Source of the DNA: Limnothrix sp. FACHB-406
GTDB taxonomy: Bacteria; Cyanobacteriota; Cyanobacteriia; CACIAM-69d
Assembly: GCF_014698235.1 (NCBI RefSeq)
Contig: NZ_JACJSP010000021.1
Span: forward strand, 1-64,000
Reading direction: 5' to 3'
DNA: 64,000 nt
The stretch's first letter is position 1, and each line of letters begins with the position of its first letter. Positions 1,878 to 56,925 of this stretch are shown here, in pieces. The notes below the pieces were generated by a model, which had not been told where the DNA came from, made no database searches, and saw only the letters and a program-made list of their open reading frames with translations. The position numbers were made by a program, and so were the translations under genes.

Positions 1878-2941
1878 AGCGTCTGCGCTCTTCTGCTGGG
1901 CTGATCGCAAAAATTAGAAATCGTCAAATCAAACCAAGAATGCAACAAATCCGGTGAATCCTATCAGTATCCCCGATGCCCAGGTGGTGATGCCCAGGTG
2001 GCGATCGTCAATCCCGGGTATGCAGTCTTGGGTACTCAGGTACTCAGTCGGCGGGGCCAGACCGTGAGATCAAGCGTTGAAATTCTGCGGATTCAGTTGC
2101 ACCCAGACTAACTGGTCTATTTCCTCGTCATGATCCTTGCCAAAGGAACTCGATCGAACACCCGAGCGAGCAGATGCCCGAGTGAGCAGATGCTTAAGGG
2201 AACGGATGCAACAGATCTAACTGATTTAACTGCTCCAATAGCCATATCTGACCTGATCAGAGCCATCAGGAGCCGCTCCCGAAGACCTGTCTAGAAGGCT
2301 AGGGTAAGCAAACCAACCAAAATTAAAGCAAAAAGTTGATGAACAATGCGATTGGCGGCGGGAGACCTTAAGGGCGATCGCCCGCCAGGAGTAGGGAAAA
2401 AATGGAGCGGCGGGGTTGGTTGAGGAGAGCTGGCAGGGAGAGGAAGCGTTGGGCCCGATTCCCCAATCATTGTCGCCTACTCCCAACTGATGGAGCAAAG
2501 GGGTCGATCGCGCCCTTGCGCAGAATTGAGGACTTTGGTGGCTCAGTTTTGTGGCCCTGCTGCGAGTGGAGGGTGAGTCGATAGCGGAGCGGCCGCAACC
2601 GTGGAAGCTGTGGAAACCGTGCCGATCGCCTTGGGCCAAGTCAGAATTGGGGAAATCCAGTTTGCAGGTATCCGTGAAACGTACGGAATGTGCGGAATAT
2701 GCAGAATTTGTTGAATTGGCGCAATTTGCGGAACTTGCGAAATTTCTATCAATTCTGGGAATTGGTCGCATCCATCGTTAAGTTTGTGTTGAGCTTTGCC
2801 CCTAAAGTTTTGCCCCTAGAGTTTTCACCTAGAGTTTGCCCCTAGAGCTTTCATCGCGAGTCTGCACCTGAATTTGTGTCCGGTTGGGGGCCCGCCGTCT
2901 CCGCATTGGTTTTCCAGTTAAGTCTGATGGTCTTTGAACAA
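1878..2941. other. Gene-free stretch with short degenerate repeats
   Basis: About 1.06 kb without a convincing gene; open frames here are biased and resemble nothing known. It contains a tandem GATGCCCAGGTGG pair (about 1976-2003), a CCGAGCGAGCAGATGCC-like pair (about 2161-2190), a degenerate 9-base array on GCGGAATTT (about 2685-2745), and repeats of GCCCCTAGAGTTT (about 2798-2852) just ahead of manC. It presumably holds the promoters of the leftward kinase and of manC, but I could not pick out confident boxes. Confidence 0.6.
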
Positions 2942-4015
2942 ATGGTTGCTTCCTCAACTCCCCAGTTAATCCCGATCGTCTTGGCCGGTGGCAAGGGTGA
3001 GCGGTTTTGGCCCCTCAGTCGCCGTCAGTTTCCCAAGCAGTTTCTCTGTTTGGATGGCAGCGGCCGCAGTTTGTTGCAAGCCACGATCGATCGCCTGATT
3101 CCGTTGGCGGGGGCGGCGGAGCATGTTTGGGTTGTGACGGGTCAACACCTGGAAGCCACGGCCCGCGAACAGTTGCCAGAATTACCGGCGGCAAATTTTG
3201 CGATCGAACCGGAAGGGCGCGACACGGCCCCGGCCCTGGCTTGGGCAACCCTGGAGGCGGCCAAGCAATATGGTGACGAGGCGGTGTTGGGCTTCTTCCC
3301 GGCGGATCACTGGATTGGGGACGGGGAAGCGTTTGCCCAAACCCTGGCGGCGGCGGCGACCTTGGCCCGCACGGAGGGGGCGATCGTCACCTTGGGCATT
3401 ACGCCAACCCAGCCGGCCACGGGCTATGGCTACATCGAACAGGGCGAGGCCTTGGGGGACTTTGCGGGCCTGCCGGGCTATCGCGTCAGTCGGTTCACGG
3501 AAAAGCCCGATCGCGCCCGGGCCGAACAGTTCCTCGCCAGTGGTCGCTATAGCTGGAATAGCGGCATGTTTGTGTTTCAGGCCAAGACGGTGATTGCGGA
3601 ATTAGAACGGCACGCCCCGGAAATTATTGAACCGCTGCGGGCGGAAGGGGTGGCGGCCTATGGCAAGGTTCCCAAGCTGAGTGTGGACTATGCGCTGATG
3701 GAAAAGACCGATCGCGCCTGCATTGTTCCGGCGGCCTTTGCTTGGGATGACCTGGGCGATTGGAATGCGATCGAGCGGCTGTTAAAGGGCGATCGGGCCA
3801 ATGTAGATTTGGCTCAACATTTGGCTTTGGAGACAACCGGGGCGATCGTTTACAGCAGCGATCCCGAAGAGTTGGTGGTCACCATTGGCCTAGAGGATGT
3901 GGTGGTGGTGCGCGATGGGAATGTGACTCTGATTGTGGCGAAGGATCGCACCCAAGATATTAAGGCGGCGGTGAAGGCGGTGCAGGATCACCCTGAATGG
4001 CTCGATCGGCTCTAG
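2942..4015 (+). CDS. manC: Mannose-1-phosphate guanylyltransferase
   Basis: Makes GDP-mannose from mannose 1-phosphate and GTP in the cytosol, the donor for cell-surface polysaccharides and glycans. The protein (357 residues) opens with the nucleotidyltransferase signature GGKGERFWPLSRRQFPKQF, followed by the HWIGDGEAF region, FTEKPD and the NSGMFVF motif of sugar-phosphate guanylyltransferases. Its length fits the single-domain ManC form; there is no C-terminal phosphomannose isomerase cupin domain as in long bifunctional versions. The ATG at 2942 starts ten residues before the conserved PIVLAGG. An in-frame ATG at 2927 and a GTG at 2876 are further upstream, but the residues they would add do not look conserved. 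The gene is preceded by a repeat-rich spacer and followed after 76 bases by an EVE-domain gene on the same strand. No other GDP-mannose pathway gene is nearby. Confidence 0.93.
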   Translation: MVASSTPQLIPIVLAGGKGERFWPLSRRQFPKQFLCLDGSGRSLLQATIDRLIPLAGAAEHVWVVTGQHLEATAREQLPELPAANFAIEPEGRDTAPALAWATLEAAKQYGDEAVLGFFPADHWIGDGEAFAQTLAAAATLARTEGAIVTLGITPTQPATGYGYIEQGEALGDFAGLPGYRVSRFTEKPDRARAEQFLASGRYSWNSGMFVFQAKTVIAELERHAPEIIEPLRAEGVAAYGKVPKLSVDYALMEKTDRACIVPAAFAWDDLGDWNAIERLLKGDRANVDLAQHLALETTGAIVYSSDPEELVVTIGLEDVVVVRDGNVTLIVAKDRTQDIKAAVKAVQDHPEWLDRL

Positions 4016-51936: not shown

Positions 51937-52959
51937 TTAGTCATTGATAAACATGCTGCTAACTGACGTGTCTTCGTGGATGCGCCAAATGGTTTCGCCC
52001 AGCACATTCGCCACCGACAAAACCGTGAGCTGGTCAAAATGGTGGTGATCCATCATCGGAATCGTGTTGGTGACAATCACCTCTTCAAATAACCCACTGG
52101 ACAAGCGCTCGATCGCCGGAGGAGACAACACCGCATGGGTGGCACAGGCATAAACCTGGCGTGCCCCTTCCCGACGCAGCATCCGGGCCCCTTCCGTGAG
52201 CGTGCCGCCTGTGTCGATGATGTCATCCACCAAAACGGCCGTTTTGCCCTTCACGTCACCAATGACGTTCAGCACTTCCGCCACATTGTGCATTTGGCGG
52301 CGCTTGTCAATGATCGCCAGGGGCGCATCGTTCAGGCGCTTAGCAAAGGCCCGGGCCCGCGCCACCCCGCCCACATCGGGCGACACCACGACAATATCCG
52401 ACAGGTTCTTGCTTTCGAGGTAGTCGATCAGGACTGGCGCACCAAAAACATGATCGAGCGGAATATCGAAATAGCCTTGGATTTGCGCTGAATGCAAGTC
52501 CATGGCCAACACCCGATCGGCTCCGGATTTCACAACCAGATTCGCCACCAGTTTGGCCGTAATCGATTCCCGGCCGGCCGTCTTGCGATCGGCCCTGGCA
52601 TAGCCGTAGTAGGGAATCACAGCGGTGACTTGGCGCGCCGAAGCCCGGCGGCAAGCATCCACCATGATCAACAATTCCATTAGATGATCATTCACAGGGC
52701 GACAAACCGGTTGGATCAGATAAACATCACAACCCCGGATTGACTCCTGAATTTGAACATAAAGCTCACCGTCGGCGAACCGTTTGCGAACCATTGGTCC
52801 CAACGGTAACCCCAGGTATGCAGCAACTTCTTCGGCCAAGGCGACATTTGCCGATCCTGAGAAGATGCGAAGTCGGCTCTTTTCCGTCACTTCGCGATGC
52901 GAAGTCGGCAGCGGAGAAGTCGCAGAGCAAATCACGGCAGACCCTCGAAGCGCGTTCAT
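51937..52959 (-). CDS. prs: Ribose-phosphate pyrophosphokinase (PRPP synthase)
   Basis: Makes PRPP from ribose 5-phosphate and ATP for nucleotide, His and Trp synthesis. The 340-residue protein has an N-terminal extension (MNALRGSAVICSATSP) before the conserved RLRIFSGSANVALAEEVAAY. DGELYVQIQESIRGCDVYLI, VTAVIPYYGYARADRKTAGR, the metal-binding DLHSAQIQGYFDIPLDHVFG and the PRPP loop VLVDDIIDTGGTLTEGARML are intact. Start is the ATG at 52959; a TTG at 52983 is possible but unneeded. Only 92 bases separate this start from the end of tnpB, so the promoter must be within or close to the mobile element's right end. Confidence 0.97.
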   Translation of the reverse strand: MNALRGSAVICSATSPLPTSHREVTEKSRLRIFSGSANVALAEEVAAYLGLPLGPMVRKRFADGELYVQIQESIRGCDVYLIQPVCRPVNDHLMELLIMVDACRRASARQVTAVIPYYGYARADRKTAGRESITAKLVANLVVKSGADRVLAMDLHSAQIQGYFDIPLDHVFGAPVLIDYLESKNLSDIVVVSPDVGGVARARAFAKRLNDAPLAIIDKRRQMHNVAEVLNVIGDVKGKTAVLVDDIIDTGGTLTEGARMLRREGARQVYACATHAVLSPPAIERLSSGLFEEVIVTNTIPMMDHHHFDQLTVLSVANVLGETIWRIHEDTSVSSMFIND

Positions 52960-53051
52960 GGCAATCTTAGCATTTCCTTCCAATTTTCTTTGGATTTGCG
53001 TCCGTCACTAATTCACTAACAATTGCTGCAATTGACTAGCAAATGCAGTAA

Positions 53052-54206
53052 TCAGGAAACTTCCTGCTTCATTGCGGCGAAGTCGGCTTCTTCCGCTCCA
53101 CAGACTGACACGACCGGACTGGCCGCCTTTTTCAAATTGATTGCGGCATTTAAGTCGCGATCAATTTGCAATCCACAGTGGTCACAATTAAACACCCGCT
53201 CTGACAGCGATAGGGTCTCTTTTTTCTTGCCGCAACGGGAACAAGTCTTGCTAGATGGAAACCAGCGATCCACGATCACCAGTTCAGAGCCATACAACTT
53301 TGTCTTGTAATCCAGTTGCCGCCGAAACTCGTAGAACCCCATATCCTGAATCGCCTTGGCTAGCTTGTGATTCGCCATCATTCCGGACACATTCAGATCC
53401 TCAATGACCACCACGCCGTGGTTCTTGGCGAGGTAGGTCGTGAGTTTGTGGATGGTGTCTTTACGGATATTGGCGATTTGCTGATGCAACCGGGCGATCC
53501 TCAATTGAGCCTTTTTCCAATTGGCAGACCCGCGTTGCTTGTGACGATTTAGCCATTGCAACCGAGAGAGCCGGGACTCCAGTTGTCTGTAGGCTTTAGC
53601 GCCTTCAAACACTTCTCCAGTGCTGAGCGTTGCTAGGGACTTGACACCCAAATCAACACCAACAATTTCAACCGCTTTAGGTGTGATGACGGGTTCGATC
53701 TCAATCCGAAACGAGATGAACCAATCATTCGCTCGGCGGCTGATTGTGACTGATTTAGGTTGAACATTTTGAGGTAATGCTTCATAGGTCTTCAGGATGC
53801 CAATCTTAGGAACCTGAATTTTATTCAGTCCCTTGATATGAATAGCTCCATCCAGTTCAAAGGAGTCATGGCGACCCTTTTTCTTGAATTTAGGAGCGCC
53901 TGAAGTCTTTTTGAAGCATCGATCCCAAGCCACCCGTAAATGACGTAAAGCATTTTGGGGTGCGCTTTTGGAGACTTCGTAGTACCAAGGGTGTTCAGAC
54001 TTCACCAAGGCTACCAACCACTTATGCAAATCAATGGCCGATGGGAATTTAATTTTTTCGTCAGTATTTGATCGGTTGTGATCAAGGATGTCTCTAGTCA
54101 GTCCCAATCCCCAATTCCAAGCATGACGTGCAACACCGGCATGGCGAGCTAATGCGGTGCGTTGTTGGTTGTTGAGCTTGAGTTGAGTTTTGAATCCGAG
54201 TAGCAT
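53052..54206 (-). CDS. tnpB: TnpB, RNA-guided nuclease of an IS200/IS605-type element
   Basis: OrfB/TnpB of IS200/IS605 elements, the RNA-guided endonuclease family that is ancestral to Cas12. The 384-residue protein looks complete. The RuvC residues are Asp185 (EIVGVDLGVKSLATLSTGE), Glu269 (GVVVIEDLNVSGMM) and Asp351 (CGLQIDRDLNAAINLKKAA). A zinc-finger of four Cys (322, 325, 341, 344) lies between. No tnpA (Y1 transposase) is nearby, so the element is a lone-tnpB type that would need a helper to move. The start is the ATG at 54206. A hairpin (53053-53066) overlaps the stop codon at the 3' end, where IS605 elements encode the guide (omega) RNA. Codon use is less GC-rich than in neighbouring genes, as in mobile DNA. 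Confidence 0.93.
   Translation of the reverse strand: MLLGFKTQLKLNNQQRTALARHAGVARHAWNWGLGLTRDILDHNRSNTDEKIKFPSAIDLHKWLVALVKSEHPWYYEVSKSAPQNALRHLRVAWDRCFKKTSGAPKFKKKGRHDSFELDGAIHIKGLNKIQVPKIGILKTYEALPQNVQPKSVTISRRANDWFISFRIEIEPVITPKAVEIVGVDLGVKSLATLSTGEVFEGAKAYRQLESRLSRLQWLNRHKQRGSANWKKAQLRIARLHQQIANIRKDTIHKLTTYLAKNHGVVVIEDLNVSGMMANHKLAKAIQDMGFYEFRRQLDYKTKLYGSELVIVDRWFPSSKTCSRCGKKKETLSLSERVFNCDHCGLQIDRDLNAAINLKKAASPVVSVCGAEEADFAAMKQEVS
53053..53066 (-). ncRNA. Candidate 3' hairpin of the TnpB omega RNA
   Basis: CAGGAAACTTCCTG is a near-perfect palindrome (CAGGA/TCCTG stem) overlapping the tnpB stop codon, at the place where IS200/IS605 right ends carry the guide-RNA scaffold. The RNA would run leftward through the end of tnpB. 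The boundary and guide cannot be fixed by eye. Confidence 0.35.
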
Positions 54207-54993
54207 CTGTTCATTGTATGACAGCCTCTAGAATGGATTCACATTTTTCAGAGAATTTGAGCAGATGACAGAAAATCAATCACTGTTGATTAACCTTTGC
54301 ACGATCGGGCGGCAATTGTGACAGAAAACGGGGGCAGTTTAACGAGTTCAATGGGGCGATCGACCATCCCCTAGCCCGATCGGCTAGGATGAGTCCCGAG
54401 GGTTGCCCAAACGGGCAATTTAACACCCAGCCCAACCCCAAACAGGGGCAAAACCCTGACTGGTGGTGCGGGCCACCGCGAGTTCTGGCCAGTTCCCGAG
54501 TCGATCGCAACGGGACAAGCCCAGGCTGCATCTGGCGGCAGATGCGGCTCAACTTGCTACCCCCAAGGAAGCGGCTAGGGACTCAGCGGAATCGCTAGCC
54601 AATGGAGATCCAACCCAATGGATCTTCAACCAACAACCGCCGCCCAGTTTCTTGGGCGGTTGTGCCGGGCGATTGATTGATCGCAGACCTGGGATAATCA
54701 GGGGAAATGGGGGTTGGGTGACAACAATGCCGCTAATCGCCCCAAGCCTGATCGGTTCATTCAGCCCTATAAATTGGTTTTAGCGCCGGTTGCGTCTGAA
54801 CAATCAAAATCACCCGACTCCTTTAATGGTTCGATCAAACAATTGATCAGTCCAATGGGGCGATGCAAGTCACGGAGTAAATTGGTTTTTTCTGAATTTC
54901 GCCTGAGTTTCGCCTGAGTTTTTGCTCGATCATCGCCTGACTATTGCCTGACTGAATTGCCATTTCAACTGTTCTTCGATCGCCCCGAGTCCC
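54207..54993. other. Gene-free stretch with several hairpins
   Basis: About 790 bases. The left 60 bases include the tnpB upstream region and the left end of the IS. Hairpins seen: CTAGCCCGATCGGCTAG (54371-54387), TTGCCC/GGGCAA with tail TTTAA (54403-54418), and ACAACCGC paired with GCGGTTGT (about 54633-54663). The right part (54785-54990) is AT-rich with repeats such as TTTCGCCTGAGTT (54896-54920) and probably holds the promoter of the downstream kinase. No gene is convincing. Confidence 0.5.
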
Positions 54994-56925
54994 ATGCAAC
55001 CGTCCCTGCCCCCCGGAACTGTTCTCCAAAATCGCTATCGCCTTGTGGAAGTGTTGGGACAGGGTGGCTTTGGGCGCACCTACCTGGCGGAGGATTTGGG
55101 GCGATTTGGCGAGCGCTGTGCCCTCAAGGAATTCACGCCGCCCGTGGGCGATGCCTACGCCCTCGAAAAATCCAATGAACTGTTCCGGCGCGAGGCAGCG
55201 GTTCTTTACCAAATCAATCACCCACAAATTCCCAAGTTTCAGGCCACCTTTGAGGCGGAGGGTCGCCTATTTTTGGTGCAGGACTACGTGCAGGGCAATA
55301 CCTATCGATCGCTTCTAGATAGCCGCCTGCACCATGGCCAGCTCTTTGCGGAAGGGGAAGTGTTCTACCTCTTGCAACAGTTGCTCCCCGTGTTGAGCTA
55401 CCTGCACAATTTGGGGATCATTCACCGGGATATCTCGCCGGAAAACATTATTCTGCGGGAGCACGATCGACTGCCCGTGTTGATTGACTTTGGGGCCATC
55501 AAAGAAATGGCCACCCGCTTTCAACAACCGGGAGCCACGGCCGTGCAGGCCACCACCGTTGGTAAGAGCGGCTATGCCCCCAGCGAACAAATTCAAACCG
55601 GCCGCGCTTACCCCAGCAGCGATCTCTATGCCTTGGCCGCCACGGTGTTGGTGTTGCTGACGGGGCGAGAACCCCAGGATTTGCTAGACGATCGCACCCT
55701 TACCTGGCATTGGGATCAGTATGTGCCCCTCACGCCGGCCTTGGGAGATCTGCTACGACGGATGTTGGCCTATCAACCGACGGAGCGCTATCCCTCTGCC
55801 TCCTTGGTGCTTCAGGCGTTGCAGGAGGTGACGTTGGATGCGACGGCCCGCCCCGTGGCCCAGCCGCCCTCCACTTCAACCCCAACTCCGGCAGCGCCGG
55901 CCCCAGCCGTTAATCCCACGGGAACTGTCCCTTCAACCATGGCGACGGTGGTGGTGGGTCGGGCTGCGCCGCCTCCGATCGCCCCCCGATCGCCCGCACC
56001 GGCCCCGGCTCCCGGCCCCGATTGGAGCGTGGAACCCCGAGGATCCTTGATGGATAACCCTTGGGCGGTGACGGTGTTAGGCGTGTTGTTGGTGGTGGGG
56101 ACGGGAGTGGGTTCCTGGTCGCTGGTGAATCAATTCCTGAGCCGATCGCCCAACAACAGCAACCCCACACCAACCGCGACGGTTTCCGAAAGTCCGCCGC
56201 TGCCTAGCCCTTCCCCCACGCCATCCCCCACCCCGTCCCCTAGCCCGATCGCCTCGCCTGTGGTCTCCACCCAGCGGTTGAACCTTCAGCCCGCCGGGGA
56301 TTTTGAAGATTCCCGCACCCTGGGTGAAAACGAAACCCTGATCTATCGTTTCCAGGCCGGCGCTGAGCAACCCCTCAGCATTTCCGTGGCAGGCAATAAC
56401 GTGATTGCTAGTCTCCTGGCTCCCGATGGTGACCCGGCGGATCGATCGAGCCGGGATCTGCGCCAATGGGATGGCGTGATTGCCGTGGCTGGTGAATATG
56501 CCCTGCAAGTGCGCGTGGCCCCCGGTGCGCCCAGGGGAGACTACCGCCTGCGCTTACGGCTAGCGGCGGCTCCCGCTTCCCCCAGTCCGGAGCCAAGCCC
56601 CACGCCAACGCCCACCCCGACTCCGGAGCCAACTCCCAGCCCCAGCCCAGAACCAACCCGCCAACCCACCTCGCGCAACTTCCGAGGTGTGACTCAGCCC
56701 CAGGTTCCCCAAACCTTTGGTTTTGAAGCCCAGGCGGGTCAGCAAATTTCAATTAGTATTCCTTCCGGTTTGCGAGCCACGGTGTTTGGCCCCAATGGCC
56801 CGATTCCGGACATGGAAGGACTGGAAGGATCCGTCAGTTTGGAAGCGCCCGTGGGCGGCAACTACGGCATTGAAGTGTCTTCGGATTTGGAAATGCCCTT
56901 TGAGATTGCCGTGCGGGTTCGGTAG
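54994..56925 (+). CDS. Membrane-anchored Ser/Thr kinase with PPC-like C-terminus
   Basis: Hanks-type kinase (643 residues) for signalling across the membrane. Residues 1-280 are the kinase domain: glycine loop LGQGGFGRTYLAE, catalytic Lys45 (CALKEF), H144-R145-D146 in IIHRDISPENIIL and D165-F-G. The usual Lys after HRD is Ser148, a feature of this cyanobacterial subgroup, so activity is plausible but unproven. A Pro-rich linker (about 285-350), a membrane helix (about 357-375, AVTVLGVLLVVGTGVGSWSL) and a Pro/Ser/Thr-rich stretch follow. The end has two beta domains of PPC type (about 425-525 and 565-643, LNLQPAGDFEDSRTLGENET), probably outside the cytoplasm. It starts at the ATG at 54994. Confidence 0.9.
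   Translation: MQPSLPPGTVLQNRYRLVEVLGQGGFGRTYLAEDLGRFGERCALKEFTPPVGDAYALEKSNELFRREAAVLYQINHPQIPKFQATFEAEGRLFLVQDYVQGNTYRSLLDSRLHHGQLFAEGEVFYLLQQLLPVLSYLHNLGIIHRDISPENIILREHDRLPVLIDFGAIKEMATRFQQPGATAVQATTVGKSGYAPSEQIQTGRAYPSSDLYALAATVLVLLTGREPQDLLDDRTLTWHWDQYVPLTPALGDLLRRMLAYQPTERYPSASLVLQALQEVTLDATARPVAQPPSTSTPTPAAPAPAVNPTGTVPSTMATVVVGRAAPPPIAPRSPAPAPAPGPDWSVEPRGSLMDNPWAVTVLGVLLVVGTGVGSWSLVNQFLSRSPNNSNPTPTATVSESPPLPSPSPTPSPTPSPSPIASPVVSTQRLNLQPAGDFEDSRTLGENETLIYRFQAGAEQPLSISVAGNNVIASLLAPDGDPADRSSRDLRQWDGVIAVAGEYALQVRVAPGAPRGDYRLRLRLAAAPASPSPEPSPTPTPTPTPEPTPSPSPEPTRQPTSRNFRGVTQPQVPQTFGFEAQAGQQISISIPSGLRATVFGPNGPIPDMEGLEGSVSLEAPVGGNYGIEVSSDLEMPFEIAVRVR

What the first reader, a model, noticed from the sequence alone, without database searches (positions are those of the whole stretch)
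52960..54206. Lone intact tnpB with 3' end next to prs
An apparently complete TnpB (all RuvC residues and four zinc cysteines) has no tnpA partner. Its 3' end, where the guide RNA scaffold is expected, is 93 bases from the start of the essential prs gene. Either the prs promoter is in the IS end, or the IS landed in the promoter without killing it. The guide sequence would fall between the IS right end and prs.
Basis: partly seen in the sequence, partly recalled or inferred. Interest (0 to 1): 0.55.

Follow-up and report, generated by a model that had tools for sequence, protein, structure and literature searches.

The report
Transposase-less IS607-type TnpB element before prs
This is an ordinary small jumping gene that carries an intact RNA-guided DNA cutter but no transposase of its own, sitting just upstream of an essential gene whose own promoter looks undamaged; older broken copies of it persist almost only in front of other genes.

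Summary
The intact tnpB (53052-54206, minus) belongs to a 1,294-bp element, 53002-54295, without tnpA. It is not IS200/IS605: both ends carry GG, insertions follow GG(G) without target duplication, relatives carry an IS607 serine transposase directly upstream, and the genome holds eight IS607 tnpA genes, seven of them beside left ends resembling this one. It is best read as a tnpB-only IS607-family element moved in trans.

The sister species (contigs match Limnothrix sp. CACIAM 69d) has the prs site empty, reading GGGG|ACGCAAATCCAAAG: a GGG-type TAM followed by the inferred guide. prs keeps a conserved extended -10 (52964-52972) between the element and a conserved GTG start (52935), so the promoter is probably neither inside the IS nor destroyed. 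About 150 bp present in the sister are missing here.

Unexpected: eight decayed right ends (guide-RNA scaffolds), all shared with the sister species, lie within 108 nt upstream of a co-directional gene or tRNA (8 of 8), against 4 of 29 unshared right ends. They may persist as host-gene leaders (ccmM, an ammonium transporter gene). Whether that is function or slow decay is open.

The parts
53002..54295 (-). Whole tnpB-only IS607-type element (1,294 bp), GG at both junctions
   Evidence: A full copy at a different site in a sister genome matches exactly query 1006-2299 of window 55300..52300; two clean empty sites for other copies (and 80/81)
54199..54295 (-). Left end, ...AAAGG|TTAATCAACAGTGATTGATTT...; the first ~42 nt resemble the left end of the resident IS607 tnpA elements
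53052..54206 (-). tnpB, 384 aa, RuvC D185/E269/D351 and four zinc-ligand cysteines intact
   Evidence: dN/dS 0.12 against the sister copy
53002..53127 (-). Right end / presumed omega-RNA (reRNA) scaffold, overlapping the tnpB 3' end, ending ...TTAGTGACGG
   Evidence: 23 model matches in two genomes; hairpins predicted, covariation inconclusive
52982..53001 (-). Inferred guide, ACGCAAATCCAAAGAAAATT
   Evidence: First 20 nt after the right-end GG; the 20-mer GG+ACGCAAATCCAAAGAAAA occurs in 8 of 276 fetched loci, all of them this place except the empty sister site L055
52964..52972 (-). Putative prs extended -10, TGCTAAGAT
   Evidence: TGNTANNAT at this place in 10 of 11 orthologous loci inspected (read by eye); a consensus sigma-70 scan with a -35 requirement found none
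52933..52935 (-). Probable true prs start codon GTG (MICSATS...), instead of ATG 52959
   Evidence: GTGAT(T/C) at this place in 11 of 11 orthologous loci inspected (read by eye)
51937..52959 (-). prs, ribose-phosphate pyrophosphokinase, downstream and co-directional

Best explanation
A non-autonomous, tnpB-only member of the IS607 family in a Limnothrix-type cyanobacterium. It is moved in trans by a serine transposase (IS607 TnpA) that joins GG dinucleotides. [quoted passage not shown] TnpB with this RNA should cut a chromosome lacking the insertion, next to a GGG-type TAM, and so favour keeping the element. It inserted upstream of the prs core promoter, which it left intact. Shown by sequence: boundaries, GG/GGG target, empty site in the sister species, intact TnpB under purifying selection. 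Inferred: transposition in trans, omega-RNA processing, cleavage, the prs promoter.
For: Intact TnpB. GG at -2/-1 in 28 of 29 distinct left-end flanks of other copies, G at -3 in 26 of 29; the element's own right end reads ACGG, with C at -3, which would spare it. ISXfa1, an IS607 TnpB, has a GGG TAM and IS607 joins GG dinucleotides (PMC10711439; PMC6188088). Empty sites without duplication: prs in G001, C95 copy against G000, C36 copy against G000. Relatives L116 and L119, 70-71% identical TnpB, have a 195-aa protein directly upstream; the L116 one is MerR + resolvase. G000 has 8 above-cut-off IS607 tnpA genes; 7 lie beside left ends matched by this element's left-end model at E 2e-4 to 0.013. 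tnpB dN/dS 0.12. Many recent copies in G002.
Against: Trans-mobilisation is not demonstrated: G001 has several full or near-full copies but no IS607 tnpA hit, so its helper must be lost or missed. NCBIfam's IS607_TnpB model scores 277 bits, below its cut-off of 350, and the IS200_TnpB model scores slightly higher, 295, also below its cut-off. The window's left flank (AAAGG) has A at -3, not the common G. No RNA or cleavage data. RNA structure support is weak.
Confidence: 0.85

Rival explanations
1. IS200/IS605 (IS1341-type) tnpB-only element, moved by a Y1 transposase.
For: IS200_TnpB model 294.6 bits against IS607_TnpB 277.2; G000 has one weak Y1 hit, 24.2 bits with cut-off 23.
Against: GG at both junctions and GGG target, IS607 tnpA directly upstream of close relatives, left ends shared with resident IS607 elements.
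Confidence: 0.06
2. The element is now a working part of prs control: prs is read from the tnpB promoter through the right end, or from a promoter inside the element.
For: Co-directional, right end 42 nt from the ATG; no terminator-like site between tnpB and prs, the only one found lying inside tnpB; old right ends persist in front of genes.
Against: A conserved extended -10 lies downstream of the element; no promoter match inside the element; the sister without the element has the same 42 nt.
Confidence: 0.15
3. Domesticated TnpB (nuclease-dead, TldR-like regulator, or fixed host gene).
For: Sits alone, coding sequence under purifying selection.
Against: All three catalytic residues present; not shared with the sister species at this site; the only exact target found outside this locus, among fetched loci, is the empty allele.
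Confidence: 0.04

Closest known systems
ISXfa1 (IS607) TnpB with reRNA
   Same: GG core, GGG TAM, guide from the right flank, RuvC TnpB (PMC10711439: passages and section 25 read)
   Different: No tnpA in this element; scaffold not compared; activity untested here
IS607-family elements of Cyanothece sp. BG0011 and Microcystis aeruginosa LEGE 91341 (L116, L119)
   Same: TnpB 70-71% identical, right ends ending ACGG
   Different: They carry a 195-aa serine TnpA directly upstream of tnpB
Resident 1.74-kb IS607 element of the same genome (208-aa tnpA, 531-aa TnpB)
   Same: First ~42 nt of the left end, GG-bounded, right end ending ATCGG
   Different: TnpB only about 24% identical; carries tnpA
ISDra2 TnpB (IS200/IS605)
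   Same: Protein architecture, catalytic triad
   Different: Y1 transposase family, TTGAT TAM
TldR repressors
   Same: TnpB relative with a guide RNA, no tnpA (from a paper abstract and recall)
   Different: TldRs are nuclease-dead (recalled); this one keeps its triad

Membership tests
IS607 family | Insertion at a GG dinucleotide, no target duplication | tested here: met
   28 of 29 left flanks GG; two empty sites of other copies
IS607 family | Serine-recombinase TnpA encoded in the element | tested here: not met
   Absent here; present in relatives L116 and L119 and in trans in G000. Filed as a non-autonomous derivative only
IS607 family | Ends acted on by IS607 TnpA | not testable with these tools
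   Left-end similarity to resident IS607 elements only
RNA-guided TnpB nuclease | RuvC D-E-D triad and zinc finger | tested here: met
RNA-guided TnpB nuclease | omega-RNA from the tnpB 3' end plus flank | not testable with these tools
   Conserved right end found; covariation inconclusive
RNA-guided TnpB nuclease | TAM next to the guide match in the empty site | tested here: met
   GGGG|ACGCAAATCCAAAG in G001
IS200/IS605 | Y1 TnpA and insertion beside a short fixed motif of that family | tested here: not met
   No Y1 gene on the contig; GG-bounded element
TldR | Loss of RuvC catalytic residues | tested here: not met

The most novel reading that the evidence does not exclude
Right ends (omega-RNA scaffolds) of this element are kept as 5' leaders of host genes (ccmM, an ammonium transporter gene, others, and now possibly prs), where resident TnpB binds or trims the leader RNA and so links host mRNAs to a transposon nuclease.
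Probability: 0.05. Interest if true: 0.75.

Novelty: new member of a known kind. Interest (0 to 1): 0.3.

Why it matters
It gives a natural, sequenced pair (occupied and empty) with an inferred guide and TAM for a cyanobacterial IS607-type TnpB without transposase, ready for a cleavage test. The side result, that old right ends survive almost only just upstream of co-directional genes, offers a testable case of how TnpB guide scaffolds may be absorbed into host 5' leaders.

Tried and rejected
Rfam gathering scan of the window: no match, so the scaffold is not recognised as a described Rfam family. tRNA scan of the window: none. RNA covariation of the right end: only 2 pairs with a change on both sides, 39 of 500 shuffles as high, so not counted as evidence; single-strand fold z = -1.66, and it favours a different 3' hairpin from the alignment fold. 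Outward hybrid promoter in the right end: looked for by eye, no consistent -10 found; consensus scan negative. Relics as trans guides for TnpB: considered and set aside, because each guide is its own downstream flank and no second target is known (not searched genome-wide). Selection on relic sequence: G000-G001 differences inside relics are similar to those of the neighbourhood, mixed by locus; only the ccmM one is unchanged over its right end. A right-end-only retention model was weakened by a shared left-end relic that also faces a gene. Literature: the listings showed no paper on this element or on relic right ends as leaders; only open-licence PMC papers are held, so this is weak evidence of absence.

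Full report
What is there. The finding describes a minus-strand tnpB at 53052-54206, one open frame of 384 aa. It matches the NCBIfam model for RNA-guided TnpB at 314.6 bits and Pfam OrfB_IS605, Cas12f1-like_TNB and HTH_OrfB_IS605. Aligned to ISDra2 TnpB, the catalytic residues are D185, E269 and D351 (ISDra2 numbers recalled; the script printed 186 for the first through an off-by-one, and the alignment gives 185). No transposase of either kind lies on the contig. prs follows co-directionally; the tnpB stop is 92 nt before the ATG at 52959.

Where the element ends. A search of 59 genomes, the window's own included, with 3 kb of this place found a sister genome, G001, with a separate copy matching exactly query 1006-2299, that is window 54295-53002. 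The element is 1,294 bp with tnpB as its only gene. Left junctions read ...GG|TTAATCAACAG, right junctions ...GTGACGG|host.

Target and TAM. In 29 distinct left flanks of other copies in G001 and G002 (two of them left-end-only relics; the window's own flank and three resident IS607 copies left out), positions -2/-1 are GG in 28, and -3 is G in 26 and A in 3. Two G001 copies have empty sites in G000 and show no duplication: for the C95 copy G000 reads TAGGTCTGG where G001 has TAGGG|element|TTGG, same length with two substitutions; for the C36 copy G000 reads GAGGGGATGC where G001 has GAGGGG|element|ATGC. IS607 insertion at (G)GG is documented (PMC6188088, passages), and ISXfa1 TnpB of the IS607 family shows GGG depletion in a TAM assay (PMC10711439, passages and section 25). 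The right end itself ends ACGG, so C at -3 would protect the occupied site if the TAM excludes C there (inference).

Family. Of 23 relatives whose flanks I printed, L116 and L119 have a 195-aa frame ending 1 nt from tnpB; the L116 one is MerR plus resolvase, the IS607 TnpA architecture. L113 and L114 show N-terminal parts of the same protein, and others nothing recognisable there. G000 carries eight IS607 tnpA genes above cut-off and one weaker hit; the three copies examined are 1.74-kb elements bounded by GG. A left-end model of the window's element, sequence only, also picks up the left ends beside seven of these eight genes (E 1.9e-4 to 0.013). The likely reading is movement in trans. Against it, G001 shows copies but no IS607 tnpA.

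The prs site. G001 lacks the element at prs: query 1-1009 and 2298-3001 match at 96% and 99%, with about 150 bp between them that G000 lacks. G001 reads GGGG|ACGCAAATCCAAAG where G000 has the right end, so the sister site shows a TAM-plus-guide target. G002 shares the few bases just left of this point with G001, so the 150 bp are probably ancestral and lost in G000, either with, before or after the insertion; GG or GGTT at both borders would suit a short-repeat or transposase-made deletion. The 42 nt between right end and ATG are identical in G000 and G001.

The prs promoter. In 11 orthologous loci (read by eye), TGNTANNAT occurs just upstream of the reading frame in 10, and GTGAT(T/C) 24 nt inside the longer frame in 11. 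I read this as an extended -10 at 52964-52972, a start site near 52958 and a GTG start at 52935. A consensus scan that demands a -35 found nothing, and no mapping exists, so this is an inference. If right, the element sits about 44 bp upstream of the transcription start and the guide covers roughly the -43 to -24 region of prs.

Selection and age. Against the G001 copy, tnpB has dS 0.345, dN 0.041, ratio 0.12; prs between the same genomes has dS 0.06. So the two tnpB copies are separate lineages, and TnpB has been kept functional without a tnpA in the element.

Decayed right ends. A right-end model finds 9 places in G000 and 14 in G001. Apart from the window copy, all 8 of G000 are at orthologous sites in G001. 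Orthologous gene starts were found in G002 for L002, L003, L004, L006 and L008, and none shows the relic (5 of 5; L006 read by eye in the output; L005 and L007 could not be judged and L247 was not tested). With a simple codon-bias gene caller, 7 of the 8 right ends lie within 108 nt upstream of a co-directional gene start; the eighth lies 84 nt before a tRNA-Arg. Among unshared right ends of G001 and G002 this holds for 4 of 29 (Fisher p = 2e-4 for 7 of 8, 1e-5 for 8 of 8). The 29 include a 225-bp internally deleted copy and a 51-nt stub; I left out two degenerate G002 ends (112 and 130 nt, co-directional) and the window copy, which would be a further near one. No tRNA lies just downstream of the right end in any of the 29. 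In the window, 88 of 475 intergenic GGG sites would qualify by position and strand. One shared left-end relic (G000 C23, G001 C35; matching sequence, orthology not tested separately) also faces outward toward a gene; its start is called 64 nt away in G001, while in G000 the caller gives a frame beginning at the relic itself.

What the relics mean. The simplest account is that deletion removes the gene-distal part of an insertion and spares what adjoins a gene start. For two loci (11 nt before ccmM, 17 nt before a gene whose product resembles PilT by eye, no Pfam match) the right end must lie in the leader or promoter of the gene, unless that mRNA has almost no leader. The ccmM identity rests on hexapeptide and RuBisCO-small repeats. 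The ccmM relic shows no difference between G000 and G001 across its right end, while 200 bp upstream of it differ at 22 positions plus gaps; the other relics do not stand out. So co-option is possible but not shown.

Verdict. A well-resolved, ordinary non-autonomous IS607-type TnpB element with a clean empty target, and a modest new observation about where its right ends survive.

Noticed in passing
L005:1501-1640 (G000 C9): A decayed right end ends 11 nt before the start codon of ccmM (carboxysome protein), its GG forming part of a GGAGG ribosome-binding-like sequence; unchanged between two species across the right end.
   Followed up: partly
L002, L003, L004, L006, L007, L008, L247: Seven further decayed right ends in the window's genome, each close upstream of a co-directional gene or tRNA (ammonium transporter, glycosyltransferase, tRNA-Arg and others), all shared with the sister species.
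   Followed up: yes
G000: L017, L018, L019 and others: 1.74-kb IS607 elements with a 208-aa tnpA and a 531-aa TnpB, GG-bounded; several further tnpA copies at contig ends.
   Followed up: partly
L156 (G001 C36): A 225-bp internally deleted copy with both ends, a MITE-like derivative; G000 has the empty site.
   Followed up: yes
G002 (many contig ends): At least 20 left and 20 right ends of near-identical copies, many at contig edges: a recent burst that breaks the assembly.
   Followed up: partly
L107 upstream of tnpB: In an Anabaena relative a divergent 75-aa ribbon-helix-helix-like protein (recognised by eye) lies 29 nt from tnpB.
   Followed up: no
window 52933-52959: prs start is probably GTG 52935, not the upstream ATG or TTG that frame-calling gives.
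   Followed up: partly
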